Below, piece after piece: positions 8,912-23,474 of a DNA stretch of 24,147 bases. This DNA comes from a virus. The stretch spans positions 1-24,147 of IMG/VR virus record IMGVR_UViG_3300030104_005123; one strand, written 5' to 3'. Below the pieces are notes generated by a model, which had not been told where the DNA came from, ran no database searches, and worked only from the letters and a program-made list of their open reading frames with translations. The translations under genes were made by a program, and so were the position numbers. Positions within the stretch are counted from its first letter, which is position 1, and every line of letters begins with the position of its first letter.

Positions 8912-9327
8912 ATCAATGCCTTTATCCTGTTAAGTATCTTTACATCTGATTCTGTTTTTTGCGGTGTAAAAATATGAGTTTTTTTAGTATTTAAACTATA
9001 AATTAAAAAGGGTTGACATGAGATTTCGGCCATCTTAATATCAAATTCAGAAGGTTCTTCATTACCGACAATGTGACTGTGAAAAATGGCCACCATTTCA
9101 TATTTTGCTTTAAAGAGTAGGTAATTTAGCGGATTTATCATAAAATATTGCGATGGTTCATCAGCTTCATTTTGTTCCATCTGAAGAATAAAATTATTAT
9201 TTTTTTTATCAAATCCTACAAATCCGCATATTTCTAGCGCCAAATAACTATGGGCCAGTTCTGATACTTTAAGCAAAAGCTCGCGTGGGTCTTTAAAAGT
9301 TTGTTCCTTCTCCATAAGAAAATCCAT
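8908..9327 (-). CDS. K-like JAMM/MPN metallopeptidase of the tail tip, lacking the NlpC/P60 domain
   Basis: The chosen start (ATG at 9327, preceded by AGGA 4 bases upstream) gives 139 residues; a TTG at 9348 would add seven. E32 (in LEICGF) and the motif HSH-x7-S-x-x-D (H83, H85, S93, D96) are the complete zinc site and catalytic set of a JAB1/MPN/Mov34 peptidase. Lambda gpK has this domain at its N-terminus and an NlpC/P60 cysteine peptidase at its C-terminus. Here only the JAMM half exists and no NlpC-like gene follows, because I comes next with a 4-base overlap. The reading frame overlaps the end of L by about 35 bases. The likely role is tail-tip assembly or processing, or cell-wall access on injection. 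Confidence 0.88.
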   Translation of the reverse strand: MDFLMEKEQTFKDPRELLLKVSELAHSYLALEICGFVGFDKKNNNFILQMEQNEADEPSQYFMINPLNYLLFKAKYEMVAIFHSHIVGNEEPSEFDIKMAEISCQPFLIYSLNTKKTHIFTPQKTESDVKILNRIKALI

Positions 9328-11512
9328 CAGTTCCTGGGAATCCACCAAATCTAGGAATTTGCTGATCGGCGTCTTTTGTTAAGGTGATGGTGCCGTATTG
9401 CAGCCATGATGCAGCTAATTTCCCATCAGCCACTTGCTGACCCCCGTAATTGCCGCTACCTGTTAGGTGTAGCGCGTTGGGAGTCACGTCAAAAACACCA
9501 GTGTCAGCCCATGTGCTTGGGTCATCTCGGTTCGAGCCCGTTACAAATCCAGTTTTCATTTCCCACCACGCCACTAAACCTATTTTTCCATCAGCGTCAT
9601 AGGGCGCGGGTTGTCCAGCGCCCGTAAATCCAGTTATGCCAGTGCCAATACTTCCAGTGCATTCGTGATATAATCGTGGCGCACAATTACTCACTGTGGG
9701 TAATGTTTCAGGCGTTCGAACTTTCCTGTATAAAAAGTTTTTTTCCTCGTCGCTTAACACCCTATTCCAAACAGCCCAAGGACCCAATTCACCATTGAAG
9801 CATAATTTTTGTTCCTCGCCATTTAAGCCTGTCCAAGTTGCGTTTCCGAAGTTAAACCTTCTTGCGCCACTGTTTCCATAAAAGGAGTGACTCACCAGCG
9901 CTGTTGTTCGTGCGTCAGCGCGAAGTTGATTCCTGTTTAATATTTGTTCTTTTAGGTCATCAAAATCCTGATTGCTGTAGACTCTAATGCGTCGCTCACC
10001 CTCAGTTGTGGATTCGGGGTCTGTATCAGTAAATATTTCAATCAGTTGAAAATTCCAACGTTCTCCAAGTGATGTTTGATAACTTTCAGGTACGTTTAGA
10101 TTAGTATCACTAGCCTCTGCCGTCCACGACCACACATTAGCCCCTTCTCCAAGTGGGCGTTTTTGCTGTGGGACTTCAAAAGCGTCAAATGCAGGACTGG
10201 CTTGCATTAGGTCACTACCTTTTGCGTGAGTAAAATTCAAAAAGGTTGAATAATAGCTGTCGTAAATTTGAAGGCTTGGAGTCAAATGGGGGTCTTCTTG
10301 GTTTAAGTCGTCGCCCCCATCCCCATCTGGTGAGTTAGAGTAGTAGGGGTTGATATCAATTCCCCAGTTTGTATTAAAAATACCACCACGATGAGGGCTA
10401 GCCTTGTTTACCTTGGTCCATCCCGCAATTGTAAAATCTCCATTCAAGACCCCAGTTAATTCTTCTTTAGTATTATATAGCATGGCGGGAATATTTGTTC
10501 CCTCCGTGCCCCCTCCCGAGAATATCACACTATTAAATCCTGTTTGAGCCAATGCCCCCTGACTTTGATAGTTAACTACTGTTGAGTTATTAAATCTTTT
10601 TCTACATGCCGAAAGCCTTTTATTGCAACCATCTTTTTGCCAGTAACTAGGATTCAGTGCGGGATGTCGCCCACTGTTAAAATCTCCGAGTTCGGGGTCA
10701 CCACTAACACATACATAGACTGTCTTGTAAGCCATTTTAGGCGCATTTACCGAAGAATCTAAGTAGTTTAATAAAATATTCGGGTTTTCGATACACGCGA
10801 CCTCACCAACTTTATAGTTCCTGTTTGTATTCCACAGGTAGTTTGGGTCAATGTAGAAATCCCCGCTTACACCCTGTGGGTATACGGAATTTTCATCCGC
10901 ATCAAGAAAGGGCCTTCCGTCGTCCCTTTCTATTGGAATACTACTGTATCTACATCCTTCCCCCCTATATTGCCAGTAACAAAATTTGGAACTAATACTC
11001 CTTTCATTTACTCTTGCGCTTTCTGTATCTAGCGGTGAATTTAATTCAAACTCTACAAAAACTTTAGATTCATAAAGCTTCTGCCCGATTATGTACTTTT
11101 CATCACTAATAATGGCTGTCGGATCTGCCGCTCCGAAGGGGTTACCTCCATCGAAATTGCTATCATCCAGATTACTCATAAAGGCGCGTTGTCTTACTAC
11201 TTTAGCATTTATAAAATCTCTAAAGTTCTGCAAAAGATTGGTAATAAAACGATCTTTATTAGCTATTCTAATCTTTGGTCGCGCAAGCGTTCCATCTGCG
11301 GCTGTTTCAAACCCGTCGCCTTCAATAGCTAACGGAAAATAAGAGATACCCTGCCACTTGATAGCTTCCCCAAATAATGTTCCCCCATGAAAACTATAAA
11401 ACGACTCAGGATGATTTACTGTATCTGGATATAGGCGGTAAAAATCCAATATAGCTGTAGGTTGTAACTCCAGTAAGTTTTTAGCTACATTATTTTTTCC
11501 TTGATCCGCCAT
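9293..11512 (-). CDS. L: Minor tail protein L with Fe-S cysteines, an insertion and a C-terminal LamG-like domain
   Basis: Residues 1-180 match the lambda gpL family: a beta-domain with WQGISYFPLAIEGDGFE and ARPKIRIANKD. Four cysteines follow, C178-x8-C187 and C296-x6-C303. The same x8 and x6 spacings bind the [4Fe-4S] cluster in lambda gpL (C173/C182, C205/C212). In lambda the pairs are 23 residues apart. Here about 108 residues separate them, and the extra part (about 225-295) has Trp/Tyr-rich NYKVGEVA and PSYWQKDG phrases that recall small carbohydrate-binding modules. After the cluster, residues about 340-650 look like a concanavalin/LamG fold (GDFTIAGWTKVN; GPWAVWNRVLSDEEKNFLY). At 739 residues it is about three times lambda L. 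It is the first gene of the tail operon. The lectin role is inferred. Confidence 0.88.
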   Translation of the reverse strand: MADQGKNNVAKNLLELQPTAILDFYRLYPDTVNHPESFYSFHGGTLFGEAIKWQGISYFPLAIEGDGFETAADGTLARPKIRIANKDRFITNLLQNFRDFINAKVVRQRAFMSNLDDSNFDGGNPFGAADPTAIISDEKYIIGQKLYESKVFVEFELNSPLDTESARVNERSISSKFCYWQYRGEGCRYSSIPIERDDGRPFLDADENSVYPQGVSGDFYIDPNYLWNTNRNYKVGEVACIENPNILLNYLDSSVNAPKMAYKTVYVCVSGDPELGDFNSGRHPALNPSYWQKDGCNKRLSACRKRFNNSTVVNYQSQGALAQTGFNSVIFSGGGTEGTNIPAMLYNTKEELTGVLNGDFTIAGWTKVNKASPHRGGIFNTNWGIDINPYYSNSPDGDGGDDLNQEDPHLTPSLQIYDSYYSTFLNFTHAKGSDLMQASPAFDAFEVPQQKRPLGEGANVWSWTAEASDTNLNVPESYQTSLGERWNFQLIEIFTDTDPESTTEGERRIRVYSNQDFDDLKEQILNRNQLRADARTTALVSHSFYGNSGARRFNFGNATWTGLNGEEQKLCFNGELGPWAVWNRVLSDEEKNFLYRKVRTPETLPTVSNCAPRLYHECTGSIGTGITGFTGAGQPAPYDADGKIGLVAWWEMKTGFVTGSNRDDPSTWADTGVFDVTPNALHLTGSGNYGGQQVADGKLAASWLQYGTITLTKDADQQIPRFGGFPGTDGFSYGEGTNF

Positions 11513-13253: not shown

Positions 13254-13260
13254 AAGAGAT

Positions 13261-13923
13261 ATGAAGAAATTAATACTCGGTTTTATAACCATGTTGGGCA
13301 TTACTTTTAGTAATGCAGGAGATATTCAACTCGATTTTACCGCTGAAGATCAGCAGTTTTATCGGGGGCTGGGAAGGGCCAAAGACGCCTTCTCAACTAC
13401 ACTGTCAACAGATCAGTCATTTGCGGGTGTTGGACTCAACGCTTCAGCCTCCTTGGTTGCAGATAGTGAATCTGAAAGTCATTTTGGCCTTGGTGCTTCA
13501 CGCCATATCAAACTAGGCTCTTTGAGCATTTTGGCGGACGCACAATTTCGTTATCATCAATTCGAGGGTGCGCTTCCGACATCACAGGAAGTTGGCCTTG
13601 GTGGATGGGTAGCCACATCTTTCGCTGACATCGGTGTGCATTTCTGGAGTGATCTGGAATATGATTGGGAGGGTGTCGAGTTGACAGTGAAGCAAGATAT
13701 CCCTGTCGGTGCAGTCAAGAACCTTACGCTGTCACCATTTATCACTTGCAGTTGGTTTGACGCTTATGACGCGATCCATGCGGGAGTTAAGCTGACATAC
13801 GCCCTAAAGGAAAATACAGATGTTTTTGTCCAAGGCGCTTATGCTGATAATGACATTGATGTTGCCACCTTTGCAGTTGATGAAGAAATCTTCTGGAGTG
13901 CAGGATTGACGTTTAAGTTCTAA
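13261..13923 (+). CDS. Outer-membrane beta-barrel protein (phage cargo gene)
   Basis: The start at 13261 is chosen because it gives a clean signal peptide (MKKLILGFITMLGITFSNA, cleavage after residue 19) directly behind a promoter; an upstream in-frame ATG at 13210 would spoil it. The mature part of about 200 residues is a series of alternating amphipathic strands with aromatic ends (SFAGVGLNASASLVAD, LGSLSILADAQFRYHQF, VGLGGWVATSFADIGVHFW, HAGVKLTYAL). It ends in FWSAGLTFKF with a terminal Phe, the hallmark recognised by the BAM complex. It therefore looks like an eight-to-ten strand outer-membrane barrel. Promoter, operator-like site and strong terminator make it an autonomous unit. Likely roles are receptor masking or superinfection exclusion, a porin, or serum or grazer resistance; none is shown by sequence. 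Confidence 0.8.
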   Translation: MKKLILGFITMLGITFSNAGDIQLDFTAEDQQFYRGLGRAKDAFSTTLSTDQSFAGVGLNASASLVADSESESHFGLGASRHIKLGSLSILADAQFRYHQFEGALPTSQEVGLGGWVATSFADIGVHFWSDLEYDWEGVELTVKQDIPVGAVKNLTLSPFITCSWFDAYDAIHAGVKLTYALKENTDVFVQGAYADNDIDVATFAVDEEIFWSAGLTFKF

Positions 13924-13998: not shown

Positions 13999-14316
13999 AT
14001 GGAACCCGAAAAATCTATTATAAAAGAGTTTCTTAATGGAGGTTGGTTAGTGCCGTTAGTTGGCGCGGCAGCAATGTTTGCGCGACTTTTATCGGGTGAT
14101 AGTGGATTATCGGCAAAACAACAATTTAAAAGAATCGTTACAGCGGCGATTGCCGCTGGCATAGCTTGGTTCGTGCTGGAGCAAACCGAAGTCTCCTCGC
14201 TTACTAAGGCGATTGCTTACGGGATAATTGGGGTTGTAAGCCCTGAGGTTATTGGGGGCATAGTTAGACTTGGCAAGAAATTCGAAAAGAATCCCTCTGA
14301 ATTCATAAAAAAATGA
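13999..14316 (+). CDS. Holin (three-TM, LydA-like)
   Basis: The 105-residue protein has three predicted hydrophobic helices at about 13-31 (GGWLVPLVGAAAMFARLL), 46-60 (IVTAAIAAGIAWFVL) and 69-87 (AIAYGIIGVVSPEVIGGIV). The C-terminus is basic (KKFEKNPSEFIKK). Size, topology and position two genes before an endolysin fit a class I holin of the LydA/superfamily III type. It would permeabilise the cytoplasmic membrane and release the endolysin at a set time. Its stop overlaps the next start by 4 bases (ATGA). Confidence 0.82.
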   Translation: MEPEKSIIKEFLNGGWLVPLVGAAAMFARLLSGDSGLSAKQQFKRIVTAAIAAGIAWFVLEQTEVSSLTKAIAYGIIGVVSPEVIGGIVRLGKKFEKNPSEFIKK

Positions 14317-18484: not shown

Positions 18485-18837
18485 AAACATTTATACCTCT
18501 AGTGGTGGCGACAACATGTTGTGTAGCCACCCTATATCTTTTGCCCGTGAAAACGTGGATGACGAACGAGGAAACGCCTGTTAAGCTTCCCGCTCATGAG
18601 TTTCCTGACCCCAATTACCAGTGGGTGAGTCCTAGTTCGCGCTACGAAATAAGAATCCAGAACAGCCATGCAGATGAAAGGCTGGAAGTAGTTCAGACAC
18701 TTGAACAGGCATTGGCGTATTTGAAAAAATACTCTATGCATCACGATGATTTATTTGTTTATGATTTAAATAGTGGTCAGATGGTTGCAGATTGCTATGT
18801 TGTGGGGAACGGTGAAGGTCAAGTAGCTATAGATTAA
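18481..18837 (+). CDS. Membrane-anchored or secreted small protein
   Basis: The start at 18481 (118 residues) is chosen over an in-frame ATG at 18418 because it overlaps the previous stop by 4 bases and gives a normal hydrophobic N-terminus (FIPLVVATTCCVATLYLLP, residues 4-22). The rest is soluble: SPSSRYEIRIQNSHADERLEVVQTLEQALAYLKKYSMHHDDLFVYDLNSGQ, an alpha/beta layout that probably faces the periplasm. No known domain is recognised. The stop overlaps the SET gene start as TAATG. Confidence 0.68.
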   Translation: MKTFIPLVVATTCCVATLYLLPVKTWMTNEETPVKLPAHEFPDPNYQWVSPSSRYEIRIQNSHADERLEVVQTLEQALAYLKKYSMHHDDLFVYDLNSGQMVADCYVVGNGEGQVAID

Positions 18838-19145
18838 TGAAAACGGATTATCCCTTCAATAGTTATCGACCTCTTCCACAAGGTTTAACGATAGGCCAAA
18901 GTAAAATTCACGGCTTGGGAGTCTTTGCAACCAAGGATTGGTCAGCCGCTACACATTTGGGGCGCACACATATTGCAGACACAAAAGATAATTGGATTAG
19001 AACGCCCTTAGGTGGTTTTATTAATCACTCTGAAGAGCCTAATGCGTTTATCTTAAACGGTAGAATACATAGAGAACTTTATACTATTAAACCAATTAAA
19101 AAAGGTGACGAAATAGTTGTGTATTACACCCTACAAACAGCTTAA
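18837..19145 (+). CDS. SET-domain protein (putative protein lysine methyltransferase)
   Basis: This 102-residue mini-SET domain has the three conserved parts in order: IGQSKIHGLGVFATKDW (residues 19-35, the SAM-binding start of SET), GGFINHSEEPNA (59-70, with N63-H64-S65) and IKKGDEIVVYYTL (87-99, with the catalytic Tyr at 96 or 97). The middle SET-I region is very short, and no post-SET cysteine cluster is present. Such proteins transfer methyl from S-adenosylmethionine to lysine side chains. In a phage the target may be a host ribosomal, nucleoid or RNA-polymerase protein, but nothing in the sequence shows it. It is translationally coupled to the membrane protein before it and is 2 bases from the Nmad1 gene. 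Confidence 0.85.
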   Translation: MKTDYPFNSYRPLPQGLTIGQSKIHGLGVFATKDWSAATHLGRTHIADTKDNWIRTPLGGFINHSEEPNAFILNGRIHRELYTIKPIKKGDEIVVYYTLQTA

Positions 19146-20765: not shown

Positions 20766-21248
20766 ATGAATATATTTGCAGTAGACAATGACCCCAAAAT
20801 CGCAGCACAACAATTGTGTGACAAACATGTAGTCAAGATGATTCTTGAGTCAGCGCAGATGCTTTGCGCTGTGTTCCCTAATGGGGACGCTCCATACAAG
20901 AGAGCATTCTACAATCACCCTTGCACTAAGTGGGCTAGAGAATCAGTCGAGAACTACGAGTGGTTGCTCAATCACGCATACGCTATGTGTCAAGAGTATA
21001 CTCGTCGCTACGGCAAGGTGCATAAGTCTCTTAATGCTATCGGTTGGTGCGGATCTAATTACCACAAGCTAAATATGCCATCCAAGGGACTCACTCCTTT
21101 CGCACAAGCAATGCCAGAGGAATACAAAAACGATTGTTCTGTTACAGCTTATCGCTCCTATTACAATGGTGAGAAAGCTTACTTCGCCAAGTGGACCAAG
21201 AGAGAGACTCCCAATTGGTTCCAGATCGAAAGAGAAATGGCTAAATAA
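20766..21248 (+). CDS. Conserved phage protein of unknown function
   Basis: The 160-residue protein starts MNIFAVDNDPKIAAQQLCDKHVVKMILE and has conserved-looking phrases NHPCTKWARES, NYEWLLNHAYAM, EYTRRYGKVHKS, LTPFAQAMPEEYK and AYRSYYNGEKAYFAKWTKRETPNWF. The pattern is familiar from many marine and other phages, always as a compact protein of this size. The His, Asp and Arg-rich motifs and the aromatic C-terminus suggest a nucleic-acid-related enzyme, but I cannot name a reaction. Base composition is noticeably more GC-rich than that of the endonuclease gene that follows with a 1-base overlap (TAATG). Confidence 0.8.
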   Translation: MNIFAVDNDPKIAAQQLCDKHVVKMILESAQMLCAVFPNGDAPYKRAFYNHPCTKWARESVENYEWLLNHAYAMCQEYTRRYGKVHKSLNAIGWCGSNYHKLNMPSKGLTPFAQAMPEEYKNDCSVTAYRSYYNGEKAYFAKWTKRETPNWFQIEREMAK

Positions 21249-21784
21249 TGAAACACAAACCACTGCCACCACTAGAAGAACTAAAAGAATATTTAGATTA
21301 TAATCCAGATAGGGGGTCATTTACTTGGAAGAAAAAACGTAAATATTCAAATATTAAAATAGGTCAAAAAGCAGGAGGATTAAATAATGAAGGTTATCAC
21401 CGAATTGACTGGCTGAAAAGCTCCTATCTGGGGCATAGACTAGCTTACTATATGTATCATGGTATAGATCCACTAGAAAAGCAGGTAGATCACATAAATG
21501 GTAATACACTAGATAATAGAATCAAAAATCTTAGATTAGCCACTCATAAACAAAATAGAAAAAATTCTAAGGTATGTAAGAATAATAATTCTGGTGTAAC
21601 TGGAGTCTTTTGGCATAAAGCTGGAAGAAAATGGGTTTCTTGCATAAATGTAGATTGTAAGCCTATATATTTAGGTTCTTTTAAGAAAAAAGAAGATGCT
21701 ATACAAGCTCGTATAGAAGCAGAGAAAAAATATTTCAGTGAGTTTAGGCGAAACCCCCAGATCGACTGCGATTTTCCCAAATAA
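21248..21784 (+). CDS. HNH homing-type endonuclease with AP2 domain
   Basis: The 178-residue protein has three parts. Residues 8-65 form an NUMOD-like start (LEELKEYLDYNPDRGSFTWKKK, HRLAYYMYHG). The HNH core is at 79-100 (QVDHINGNTLDNRIKNLRLATH; D81-H82, N90, H100). An AP2 DNA-binding domain is at 116-165 (GVTGVFWHKAGRKWV, YLGSFKKKEDAIQARIEAEKKYF). Such free-standing genes cut DNA of phages lacking them and so spread. The gene is far more AT-rich than its upstream neighbour, a sign of transfer. The last ten codons (NPQIDCDFPK) lie inside copy A of a repeat found again 1.3 kb downstream. Confidence 0.92.
   Translation: MKHKPLPPLEELKEYLDYNPDRGSFTWKKKRKYSNIKIGQKAGGLNNEGYHRIDWLKSSYLGHRLAYYMYHGIDPLEKQVDHINGNTLDNRIKNLRLATHKQNRKNSKVCKNNNSGVTGVFWHKAGRKWVSCINVDCKPIYLGSFKKKEDAIQARIEAEKKYFSEFRRNPQIDCDFPK
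21751..21784 (+). repeat. Repeat copy A, 34 bases, at the end of the HNH gene
   Basis: It is identical to copy C at 23046-23079 except for one base (C in CCCCCAG against T in CCCCTAG). It encodes the last residues and stop of the HNH gene. AGATCG-ACTG-CGATTT can form a weak 6-base stem before TTT. Confidence 0.85.
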
Positions 21785-21900: not shown

Positions 21901-21940
21901 TAAAAAGTCGCAGATCAAGCGCGTTTTTCTCAAATAAGAG
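21901..21940 (+). repeat. Repeat copy B (diverged)
   Basis: It shares TAAAAAGYCSCAGATC with copy D and CAAATAAG with all copies. It lies between the small hydrophobic frame and the promoter of the secreted-protein gene. The stretch 21877-21963 otherwise holds only this repeat and the promoter box. Confidence 0.65.
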
Positions 21941-21963: not shown

Positions 21964-23055
21964 ATGAAACCCCTAGTCTGCTTGTTTGGGGTCTTCACAT
22001 TAGCGTTTGTCTCTTTTGTGGAGGCTCAAAACGCCACATCTGATTACTTTGGCTTCCATTACGAGTTAATTGAACCAAATAGTTTTACTCCCGTTGCCAT
22101 TAACGTTACGGAAAATGCTAATGGAACAAGTAATCGGTCAATTTCTGACATCTTTGGGGAAAAGAATGAAATTAATCTAAAGGTTAGTGCCACCCCCAAC
22201 CAATCTGACGTAATCTGGGTCAAGGAAGAGTCTGGAATCTGGTTGCAGATCTACTACAATGCGACAAATATAGAAGCTTTTGGTATAACTGAGGGCTGGA
22301 GGTATATAGGTGGGGGCAATCATGATATCGGGGATTATGTTATCCCACAAAATAAAGCTTTCTTTATACAATCAAAAAAAGATTTTGAGTGGTATATGGC
22401 TTTTGGTGGGTATGTCAGGCAGGAATCCATGACTTATTGGGTTCAGCATGGATTTAATTTTTTAAATAGGGGTTATCCTGCAAGAATTTCACTGAATGAT
22501 TCCAAGATACACCTGTCCAAAGGATTTAAAAAGGGTGATGCCATGACGGGCGACATTGTTTGGCTATATAGAGATGGTGATTCAGAGGGTGTTGATCCAT
22601 ACTACGAACAATATTATTATTCCGAAGGCAATATCTTTATGACCGAGGGCTGGAAGAAGTTGGGCGGCGATGTGTCAGACGCTGGCGAAGAGTTCATACC
22701 TAATACATTGATCATACAAACAAGAGGGGCTGGAGGAAAAGTTGTCTTACATCCACCCCCAGGTTTTCCATACGCCAAAAAGACAACCGCCACTATACCG
22801 CCCAAACCACAGGTTTACACTTATCTTAGTTTAGATGAATTTGGCGACCCATACTTTAATGTCATTTGGCAATCCGATGATTCTCAAATTAATTATACAA
22901 CTGAAATTTGGGATGATTATAATAAAGGGTGGTGGCAACTTGATAGCCGCACAGTAGAAGCGGGGGTTATTTTAGATCAATGGGCGAGCATATTGAGCTT
23001 GCGTTACGGTTTAGGTAGAGTGGTTGCGGGTTGGGTGGCTGTTGAAAACCCCTAG
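21964..23055 (+). CDS. Secreted protein resembling the verrucomicrobial TIGR02597 family (phage cargo gene)
   Basis: The 363-residue protein has a signal peptide (cleavage after A21, VEA-Q). Two related modules follow: SDVIWVKEESGIWLQIYYN...GWRYIGGGNHDIGDYVIPQNKAFFIQ (about 75-140), and GDIVWLYRDGD...YYYSEGNIFMTEGWKKLGGDVSDAGEEFIPNTLIIQTRG (about 195-260). A C-terminal beta part near 275-363 has YTYLSLDEFGDPYFNVIWQ. The repeated pattern, Trp then YYY then GW(R/K)xxGG then an IP-x-x-(A/T)-xx-IQ strand, is what I recall of TIGR02597, a paralogue-rich secreted family of Verrucomicrobiota of unknown function. It is probably captured host DNA. Repeats A/B lie before and C/D after it, and its stop codon lies in copy C. 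Confidence 0.72.
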   Translation: MKPLVCLFGVFTLAFVSFVEAQNATSDYFGFHYELIEPNSFTPVAINVTENANGTSNRSISDIFGEKNEINLKVSATPNQSDVIWVKEESGIWLQIYYNATNIEAFGITEGWRYIGGGNHDIGDYVIPQNKAFFIQSKKDFEWYMAFGGYVRQESMTYWVQHGFNFLNRGYPARISLNDSKIHLSKGFKKGDAMTGDIVWLYRDGDSEGVDPYYEQYYYSEGNIFMTEGWKKLGGDVSDAGEEFIPNTLIIQTRGAGGKVVLHPPPGFPYAKKTTATIPPKPQVYTYLSLDEFGDPYFNVIWQSDDSQINYTTEIWDDYNKGWWQLDSRTVEAGVILDQWASILSLRYGLGRVVAGWVAVENP

Positions 23056-23079
23056 ATCGACTGCGATTTTCCCAAATAA
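23046..23079 (+). repeat. Repeat copy C, at the end of the secreted-protein gene
   Basis: It is a 33-of-34 match to copy A, in direct orientation, 1295 bases downstream. The single difference creates the TAG stop of the secreted-protein gene. It is followed 4 bases later by copy D. Confidence 0.85.
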
Positions 23080-23082
23080 GCG

Positions 23083-23122
23083 TAAAAAGCCCCAGATCGA
23101 ACGATTTTTTGCCAAATAAGCG
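23083..23122 (+). repeat. Repeat copy D
   Basis: It reads TAAAAAGCCCCAGATCG then AACGATTTTTTGCCAAATAAGCG; compared with A and C it is 2 bases shorter in the middle. Together with copy C it fills most of the 89-base space between the convergent genes, and its T6 run might aid termination of the plus-strand gene. Confidence 0.75.
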
Positions 23123-23144: not shown

Positions 23145-23179
23145 TTAAATCGTTCTTTTAATATAACCTAACGATTTAA
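23145..23179. repeat. Inverted repeat TTAAATCGTT / AACGATTTAA at the end of the minus-strand gene
   Basis: The arms are at 23145-23154 and 23170-23179 and are perfectly complementary, with a 15-base loop. The left arm holds the stop codon of the gene. In the minus-strand transcript the stem would lie at the 3' end and be followed by an A-run and GTTTTTC. It may be a transcript-stability hairpin or weak terminator. Confidence 0.6.
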
Positions 23180-23474
23180 TTTGCATGATTAGATTGTTGA
23201 CGTTAGTAACAGAAATGTTTTTAGTCTTTACGGTCAGGGGATAATTTAATTCCGTATCTAATCTTATTCCTTCTTCTTTTGTATCTTGTGGCAGGATTTC
23301 TGAAACGTAATCGTACAATCCTTTTCTTTTGAGTAGCTTATAATAGTAATCTATTTGTTCTTTCTGAGCCTCGACCAGCACATCCATTCCCAAATAGCTT
23401 TTAACCGTCATAGTTAAATACCTAAAATATAATCCTTCGTTTGTAGTTAGGTGAGACACAACGATAAGGTTCAT
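23145..23474 (-). CDS. Hypothetical protein
   Basis: The 109-residue protein starts MNLIVVSHLTTNEGLYFRYLTMTVKSYLG, goes on with a helical EAQKEQIDYYYKLLKRKGLYDYVSEIL segment, and ends in strands (LNYPLTVKTKNISVTNVNNLIMQIKSLGYI). The early hydrophobic strand, the helix after it, and the YYYKLLKRKGLYDYVSEI phrase resemble small phage proteins with an HAD-like or Rossmann-like layout, but no catalytic motif is seen. It diverges from the next gene across a palindrome that bears an AGTGTAA box on each strand, 8 bases from this start. A 10-base inverted repeat overlaps its stop codon. Confidence 0.68.
   Translation of the reverse strand: MNLIVVSHLTTNEGLYFRYLTMTVKSYLGMDVLVEAQKEQIDYYYKLLKRKGLYDYVSEILPQDTKEEGIRLDTELNYPLTVKTKNISVTNVNNLIMQIKSLGYIKRTI

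What the first reader, a model, noticed from the sequence alone, without database searches (positions are those of the whole stretch)
21964..23055. Phage-borne paralogue of a verrucomicrobial secreted family
The protein has a signal peptide and two copies of a Trp / YYY / GWxxxGG / IP-x-x-x-xx-IQ module, which I recall as TIGR02597, a large secreted family of Verrucomicrobiota with no known role. A phage copy with its own AGTGTAA promoter suggests that it alters the surface or envelope of the infected cell. It is also the best host clue in the window.
Basis: partly seen in the sequence, partly recalled or inferred. Interest (0 to 1): 0.6.

Follow-up and report, generated by a model that had tools for sequence, protein, structure and literature searches.

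The report
Phage copy of verrucomicrobial surface protein
A virus of marine Verrucomicrobia bacteria carries its own reshaped, exported version of a bacterial surface-protein family whose bacterial genes usually sit beside a membrane-anchor gene, so the virus probably uses it to change the outside of the cell it infects.

Summary
ORF 21964-23055 is real, and its family is under purifying selection (dN/dS 0.15-0.17). It encodes a signal-peptide-like N-terminus, two copies of one W/YYY/GWxxxGG/IP module, and a C-terminal FnIII-like domain. NCBIfam TIGR02597 hits it weakly (19 bits, E 5e-4, cut-off 50), so it is not a formal member. Homology is nevertheless established: a profile of the phage family finds Verrucomicrobiota proteins at E down to 2e-43, some of which (others than that best hit) also pass the TIGR02597 cut-off. 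The phage proteins form one clade (100/100) grouped with verrucomicrobial rows. The host reading has independent support: endolysin and tail-J relatives lie in Verrucomicrobiales assemblies, and a related phage carries a DUF1501 protein 74% identical to verrucomicrobial ones. The gene is optional cargo in a hotspot where related phages carry nothing, or glycosyltransferase, sulfotransferase or prepilin-like genes. A GTGTAA promoter motif sits at -14. Bacterial TIGR02597-like genes are mostly followed by a PEP-CTERM gene (30 of 46), a partner not found in the phage loci. Best reading: an exported mimic that remodels the infected cell's surface, perhaps blocking re-adsorption or superinfection. 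That function is inferred, not shown.

The parts
21964..23055 (+). gene for the exported TIGR02597-like phage protein, 363 aa
   Evidence: ORF; 96% identical copy in L002; dN/dS 0.17 against L002
21950..21955 (+). GTGTAA promoter-like element, starting 14 nt before the ATG
   Evidence: most enriched upstream hexamer in the phage group, modal start -14
21964..22026 (+). signal-peptide-like N-terminus, residues 1-21
   Evidence: hydrophobic helix 2-16 in the model, then VEA|QN; read by eye, no predictor run
22123..22422 (+). module 1, residues 54-153
   Evidence: repeat of module 2, hhalign probability 98.7
22423..22767 (+). module 2, residues 154-268
   Evidence: no clear solved fold
22789..23052 (+). 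C-terminal FnIII-like domain, residues 276-363, outside the match to the bacterial family
   Evidence: structure alignments Z up to 6.6; phage profile matches bacteria over about positions 55-265 in the strong hits
21751..21784 (+). 34-nt repeat copy 1, at the end of the HNH gene
21904..21937 (+). repeat copy 2 (76% identical)
23046..23079 (+). repeat copy 3, overlapping the end of the gene (97% identical)
23086..23119 (+). repeat copy 4
20766..21248 (+). left border of the cargo hotspot: pyrimidine-dimer glycosylase gene
   Evidence: Pfam PF03013; conserved neighbour
21248..21784 (+). HNH endonuclease gene with an AP2-like segment, second cargo in the hotspot
   Evidence: PF13392 57 bits; AP2 18.9 bits, below cut-off
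23145..23474 (-). right border of the hotspot: conserved 109-aa gene
   Evidence: 52 related loci; interval to the glycosylase gene 81 to 2582 bp where both genes stand at the hotspot

Best explanation
The gene encodes an exported phage protein derived once from a verrucomicrobial surface/secreted family (TIGR02597-like). It is kept as optional cargo in an envelope-modification hotspot, behind a GTGTAA promoter motif of the type found before tail and holin-like genes. Proposed mechanism: late in infection the protein goes through Sec to the periplasm or cell surface. Its two modules occupy the partner (a PEP-CTERM-anchored protein or a surface polymer) that the host's own TIGR02597 protein would bind, and the added FnIII-like domain replaces or blocks the normal outer face. 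The changed surface lowers re-adsorption of progeny and superinfection by competitors. Shown: ORF, homology, two modules, single clade, purifying selection, hotspot, promoter motif. Inferred with good support: export, Verrucomicrobiota host. Inferred with weak support: late timing, partner competition and exclusion.
For: Homology bridged through bacterial proteins that both the phage profile and TIGR02597 recognise; phage rows one clade grouped with verrucomicrobial rows; purifying selection in three separate pairs; hotspot neighbours in related phages include GT2, sulfotransferase and prepilin-like genes; GTGTAA motif at -14, also before a minor tail gene and a holin-like gene; bacterial relatives paired with PEP-CTERM genes, no such gene seen in the phage loci; host group supported by endolysin, tail J and DUF1501.
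Against: No direct evidence of surface location, of a bound partner or of exclusion. The role of TIGR02597 itself is unknown. The 46 bacterial loci include relatives without a PEP-CTERM neighbour. Late timing rests on a motif only. Some hotspot cargo (cupin, HNH) is not envelope-related. Host reading lacks CRISPR or culture evidence.
Confidence: 0.42

Rival explanations
1. Exit or dispersal factor: the exported protein binds and loosens the host's PEP-CTERM/exopolysaccharide matrix at lysis, so that progeny are not trapped in it.
For: Promoter motif shared with tail and holin-like genes; relatives paired with PEP-CTERM genes, a tag tied to exopolysaccharide (PMC1569441).
Against: No enzyme family hit; no solved fold with a lytic activity among clear matches.
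Confidence: 0.18
2. Host-fitness cargo: the phage supplies a surface protein that helps the infected or lysogenic cell attach or take up nutrients, as in lysogenic conversion.
For: Optional cargo of host origin in a hotspot; other host-type genes in relatives, such as DUF1501.
Against: No integrase or other lysogeny gene was recognised among the window genes scanned; the record may be a fragment.
Confidence: 0.17
3. Virion-associated adhesin: the protein decorates the particle and binds host glycans or surfaces.
For: FnIII-like domain resembles domains of phage tail tips among other FnIII proteins (lambda tail tip Z 6.5).
Against: Signal-peptide-like N-terminus, unusual for phage virion proteins; encoded away from the tail operon and absent from most related phages (9 of 44 records).
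Confidence: 0.1
4. Passenger gene carried along by endonuclease-driven exchange at the hotspot, with no use to the phage.
For: Neighbouring HNH gene and repeats in the window; patchy distribution.
Against: dN/dS 0.15-0.17 in three separate pairs; old single clade kept in divergent phages and in at least three genomic settings; L100 and L178 carry it at the hotspot without this HNH gene.
Confidence: 0.1

Closest known systems
TIGR02597 (NCBIfam paralog family, Verrucomicrobiota)
   Same: signal-peptide-like start; two tandem modules with the W / YYY / GWxxxGG pattern; homologous across both modules by profile comparison
   Different: scores 19 bits against a cut-off of 50; lacks most of the bacterial N-terminal region; adds a C-terminal FnIII-like domain; on a phage and without a PEP-CTERM neighbour
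Unnamed verrucomicrobial subgroup closest to the phage clade (L267, L268, L269, L273, L274, L281)
   Same: joined with the phage clade at 99/96 support; best phage-profile scores in the phylum sample
   Different: three of them (L267, L268, L269) get no TIGR02597 hit either; no FnIII-like C-terminus within the profile match
PEP-CTERM/exosortase sorted proteins
   Same: their genes stand beside the bacterial relatives
   Different: the phage protein has no PEP-CTERM tail, and no such gene was found in the viral loci
Phage surface-modification and superinfection-exclusion genes (morons)
   Same: optional genes thought to act on the host envelope; the same hotspot carries glycosyltransferase and sulfotransferase genes in relatives
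   Different: no homology to a known exclusion protein was found; exclusion was not tested

Membership tests
TIGR02597 | score at or above the curated NCBIfam cut-off (50 bits) | tested here: not met
   19.0 bits, E 5.3e-4; the other six rows of A1 give no hit
TIGR02597 | full-length match to the model | tested here: not met
   model positions 183-327 of 363 only
TIGR02597 | common descent with proteins that pass the cut-off | tested here: met
   L281, L254, L271 and L259 pass the cut-off and are hit by the phage profile with 91, 62, 60 and 63 bits; hhalign E 1.2e-15; tree
TIGR02597 | secreted, N-terminal signal peptide | tested here: inconclusive
   hydrophobic helix 2-16 and VEA|QN by eye; no predictor and no experiment
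TIGR02597 | paralog family of Verrucomicrobiota genomes | tested here: inconclusive
   carried by a phage whose host is inferred, not shown, to be in this phylum
PEP-CTERM protein | C-terminal PEP motif, hydrophobic stretch and basic cluster | tested here: not met
   sequence ends VAVENP; no PEP-CTERM-like ORF in the viral loci
FnIII fold (C-terminal domain) | FnIII beta-sandwich | tested here: inconclusive
   many FnIII entries at Z 5-6.6 over residues 277-361, but Z under 8 may mean only a common arrangement
superinfection-exclusion protein | blocks adsorption or DNA entry of a later phage | not testable with these tools
   needs a host and phage in culture

The most novel reading that the evidence does not exclude
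Verrucomicrobia display a two-component surface system: a TIGR02597 protein held by a PEP-CTERM partner encoded next to it. Their phages carry a soluble mimic of the first component, capped by an FnIII-like domain, that invades this system to remodel or seal the surface of infected cells. This would be a dominant-negative type of viral surface exclusion, and would give TIGR02597 its first role.
Probability: 0.25. Interest if true: 0.75.

Novelty: new variant of a known kind. Interest (0 to 1): 0.5.

Why it matters
No paper in the searched library names TIGR02597. Two results make its role testable: its genes are paired with PEP-CTERM genes, and viruses of apparently the same bacteria keep a trimmed and re-capped copy under selection. 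It also links a group of marine phages, with no near relative in the phage collection searched, to Verrucomicrobiota by several genes.

Tried and rejected
Single-protein scans found nothing distant: genome contigs with P0001 gave no relative, the INPHARED phages none. Pfam and PDB sequence searches gave nothing. PHROG 11408 (E 0.0014, 32 residues) was judged chance. Foldseek on the full model and on the modules alone gave no PDB match under E 1e-3; the modules' best Z was 4.0, so no fold can be named, which does not show that the fold is new. BFVD hits at E 5e-5 to 8e-4 have TM under 0.2 and were treated as beta-rich noise. A negative control in another phylum could not be run (the E. coli record is not held), so specificity to Verrucomicrobiota rests on the phylum samples and on one plasmid search with a bacterial relative (no match). 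The idea that the D1 repeats make the gene a self-contained mobile unit with HNH was rejected: L002 lacks the left copy at the HNH end and has a different HNH neighbourhood, and the same repeat ends many other genes and cargo-free sites. The dN/dS for L157/L216 is an artefact of a one-codon offset and is not used. The short matches of 22-29 nt (E 0.002-0.006) are near chance level over 309 genomes and are not taken as spacers.

Full report
What is there. ORF 21964-23055 (+) encodes 363 aa. The window is a whole IMG/VR virus record of 24,147 bp with a lambda-type tail module (PHROGs J, tail assembly, minor tail), a CHAP endolysin, a dCMP deaminase, a pyrimidine-dimer glycosylase and an HNH endonuclease, so it is phage DNA. 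A 96% identical copy lies in another contig (L002).

Domain structure. AlphaFold2 on 12 phage sequences gives a mostly beta protein (pLDDT 82, pTM 0.77): N-terminal hydrophobic helix, two modules, C-terminal beta domain. Module 1 and module 2 are repeats of each other (hhalign 98.7%, E 2e-16). The C-terminal domain resembles FnIII domains (Z up to 6.6, a level that can mean only a common arrangement). The modules alone have no clear match among solved structures.

Relationship to TIGR02597. The direct score is weak (19 bits against a cut-off of 50), and the other six phage rows of A1 are not hit. The link was therefore tested the other way. A profile of nine phage sequences searched over 288 Verrucomicrobiota genomes hit 14 genomes, best E 5e-39. 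Several proteins it hits also pass the TIGR02597 cut-off: L281 51.9, L254 72, L271 55.7, L259 53.9 bits, against 91, 62, 60 and 63 bits with the phage profile. The very best hits (L267, L268, L269) get no TIGR02597 hit themselves. Profile-profile comparison gives E 1.2e-15 across both modules. In a tree of 51 sequences the ten phage rows are one clade (100/100), joined with six bacterial rows at 99/96; the root is at the midpoint. The homology is firm, but the protein is outside TIGR02597 as NCBI defines it.

Host. In the order that holds genome G296 and also the Akkermansia genome G046 (hence Verrucomicrobiales, by established taxonomy), a 12-row phage profile hits 43 of 142 genomes, best E 2e-43, against 14 of 288 with the 9-row profile in the phylum-wide sample; the profiles differ slightly, so the ratio is indicative. 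Independent genes agree. The window's endolysin is 52-53% identical to proteins in two Verrucomicrobiales genomes, while the best phage-collection match is 38%. A tail-J relative of 729 bits, 40% over 1,109 columns, lies in the assembly of a third, against at most 242 bits among the phage-collection hits listed; that contig may be viral DNA binned with the genome. A related phage (L291) with the same gene carries a full-length DUF1501 protein, 74% identical to verrucomicrobial proteins, with at most 44% in plasmids of other phyla. No CRISPR evidence was obtained, and no other phylum could be searched as a control.

Locus. The gene sits between a pyrimidine-dimer glycosylase gene and a conserved 109-aa gene. 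In related phages this interval is 81-83 bp (L004, L187) or holds other cargo: GT2 glycosyltransferase (L182, L200), sulfotransferase (L100, L178; weak in L101), prepilin-like proteins (L107, L108, L210; below the Pfam cut-off in L108 and L210, L107 not scanned), a cupin (L084). Several of these act on the envelope or surface polymers by family knowledge. The gene is also found elsewhere: in L157/L216, and in a third group (L287, L291, L292), where in L291/L292 a CAP-domain gene precedes it and a sigma-70 gene follows. A repeat CCAGATCGA..CCAAATAA ends many genes in and near the hotspot, including cargo-free sites; its role is unknown.

Expression. GTGTAA is tenfold enriched upstream of genes in this phage group, most often starting at -14, and sits there before this gene; AGTGTAA lies just upstream of the minor tail gene 9293-11512 (-) and the holin-like gene at 13999. 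Late expression is inferred. In L178, L205 and L141 the codon in the ATG position is ATC, with the same spacing from GTGTAA.

Selection. dN/dS is 0.17 (window/L002), 0.165 (L178/L205) and 0.149 (L291/L292), so the protein is maintained.

Bacterial relatives and a partner. In 30 of 46 verrucomicrobial TIGR02597-like loci the gene is followed on the same strand by an ORF of 185-336 codons (stop to stop) ending in a PEP-CTERM tail, and the TIGR02597-like protein itself never shows such a tail (its script printed 33, of which L266, L282 and L283 are PAP-type false positives and were removed by eye). Five of eleven close Verrucomicrobiales loci show it too, and none of 14 loci fetched for other genes does, though those are mostly shorter. 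PEP-CTERM is a sorting tag of outer-membrane bacteria with exopolysaccharide (PMC1569441). The pairing suggests a two-part surface system. No PEP-CTERM-like ORF was found in the viral loci.

Mechanism. Predicted export, derivation from a secreted family, the kind of cargo sharing the hotspot, and the promoter class point to a protein that acts on the infected cell's envelope. The specific proposal, a mimic that replaces the host's TIGR02597 component and reduces re-adsorption or superinfection, is the most economical use but has no direct test here (confidence 0.42). Exit from a matrix, host fitness, virion decoration and passenger status remain open at lower odds.

Noticed in passing
L237-L286 and L303-L313 (Verrucomicrobiota loci): TIGR02597-like genes are mostly followed on the same strand by a small PEP-CTERM gene: 30 of 46 loci, 5 of 11 further loci.
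   Followed up: partly
window 21751, 21904, 23046, 23086; L004, L097, L098, L100, L104, L187 and others: A roughly 27-nt motif CCAGATCGA..CCAAATAA lies at the 3' ends of many genes and cargo-free sites of this phage group, sometimes in tandem.
   Followed up: partly
window 11521, 13983, 16579, 21950, 23483, 23495 and 17 phage loci: GTGTAA at about -14 from the start codon is the leading upstream motif of this phage group; it implies very short leaders.
   Followed up: partly
L178:17118, L205:16070, L141:16293 (also L157, L216): The codon aligned with the ATG of this gene is ATC, at the same distance from GTGTAA in the first three.
   Followed up: no
L291:4808-6220: A viral contig carries a full-length DUF1501 protein (480 bits) 74% identical to verrucomicrobial proteins.
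   Followed up: partly
window 13258-13920: A second signal-peptide-bearing protein of the window, read by eye as an outer-membrane-barrel type; no Pfam hit, no phage-collection match, one weak match in Verrucomicrobiota genome G212.
   Followed up: partly
window 18837-19145: A small phage protein with a SET domain (PF00856, 36 bits).
   Followed up: no
window 21248-21784 and L002:8930-9918: The end of the HNH gene resembles the end of the glycosylase gene before it (76% over 33 nt); L002 has an extra 153-aa gene between the two.
   Followed up: no
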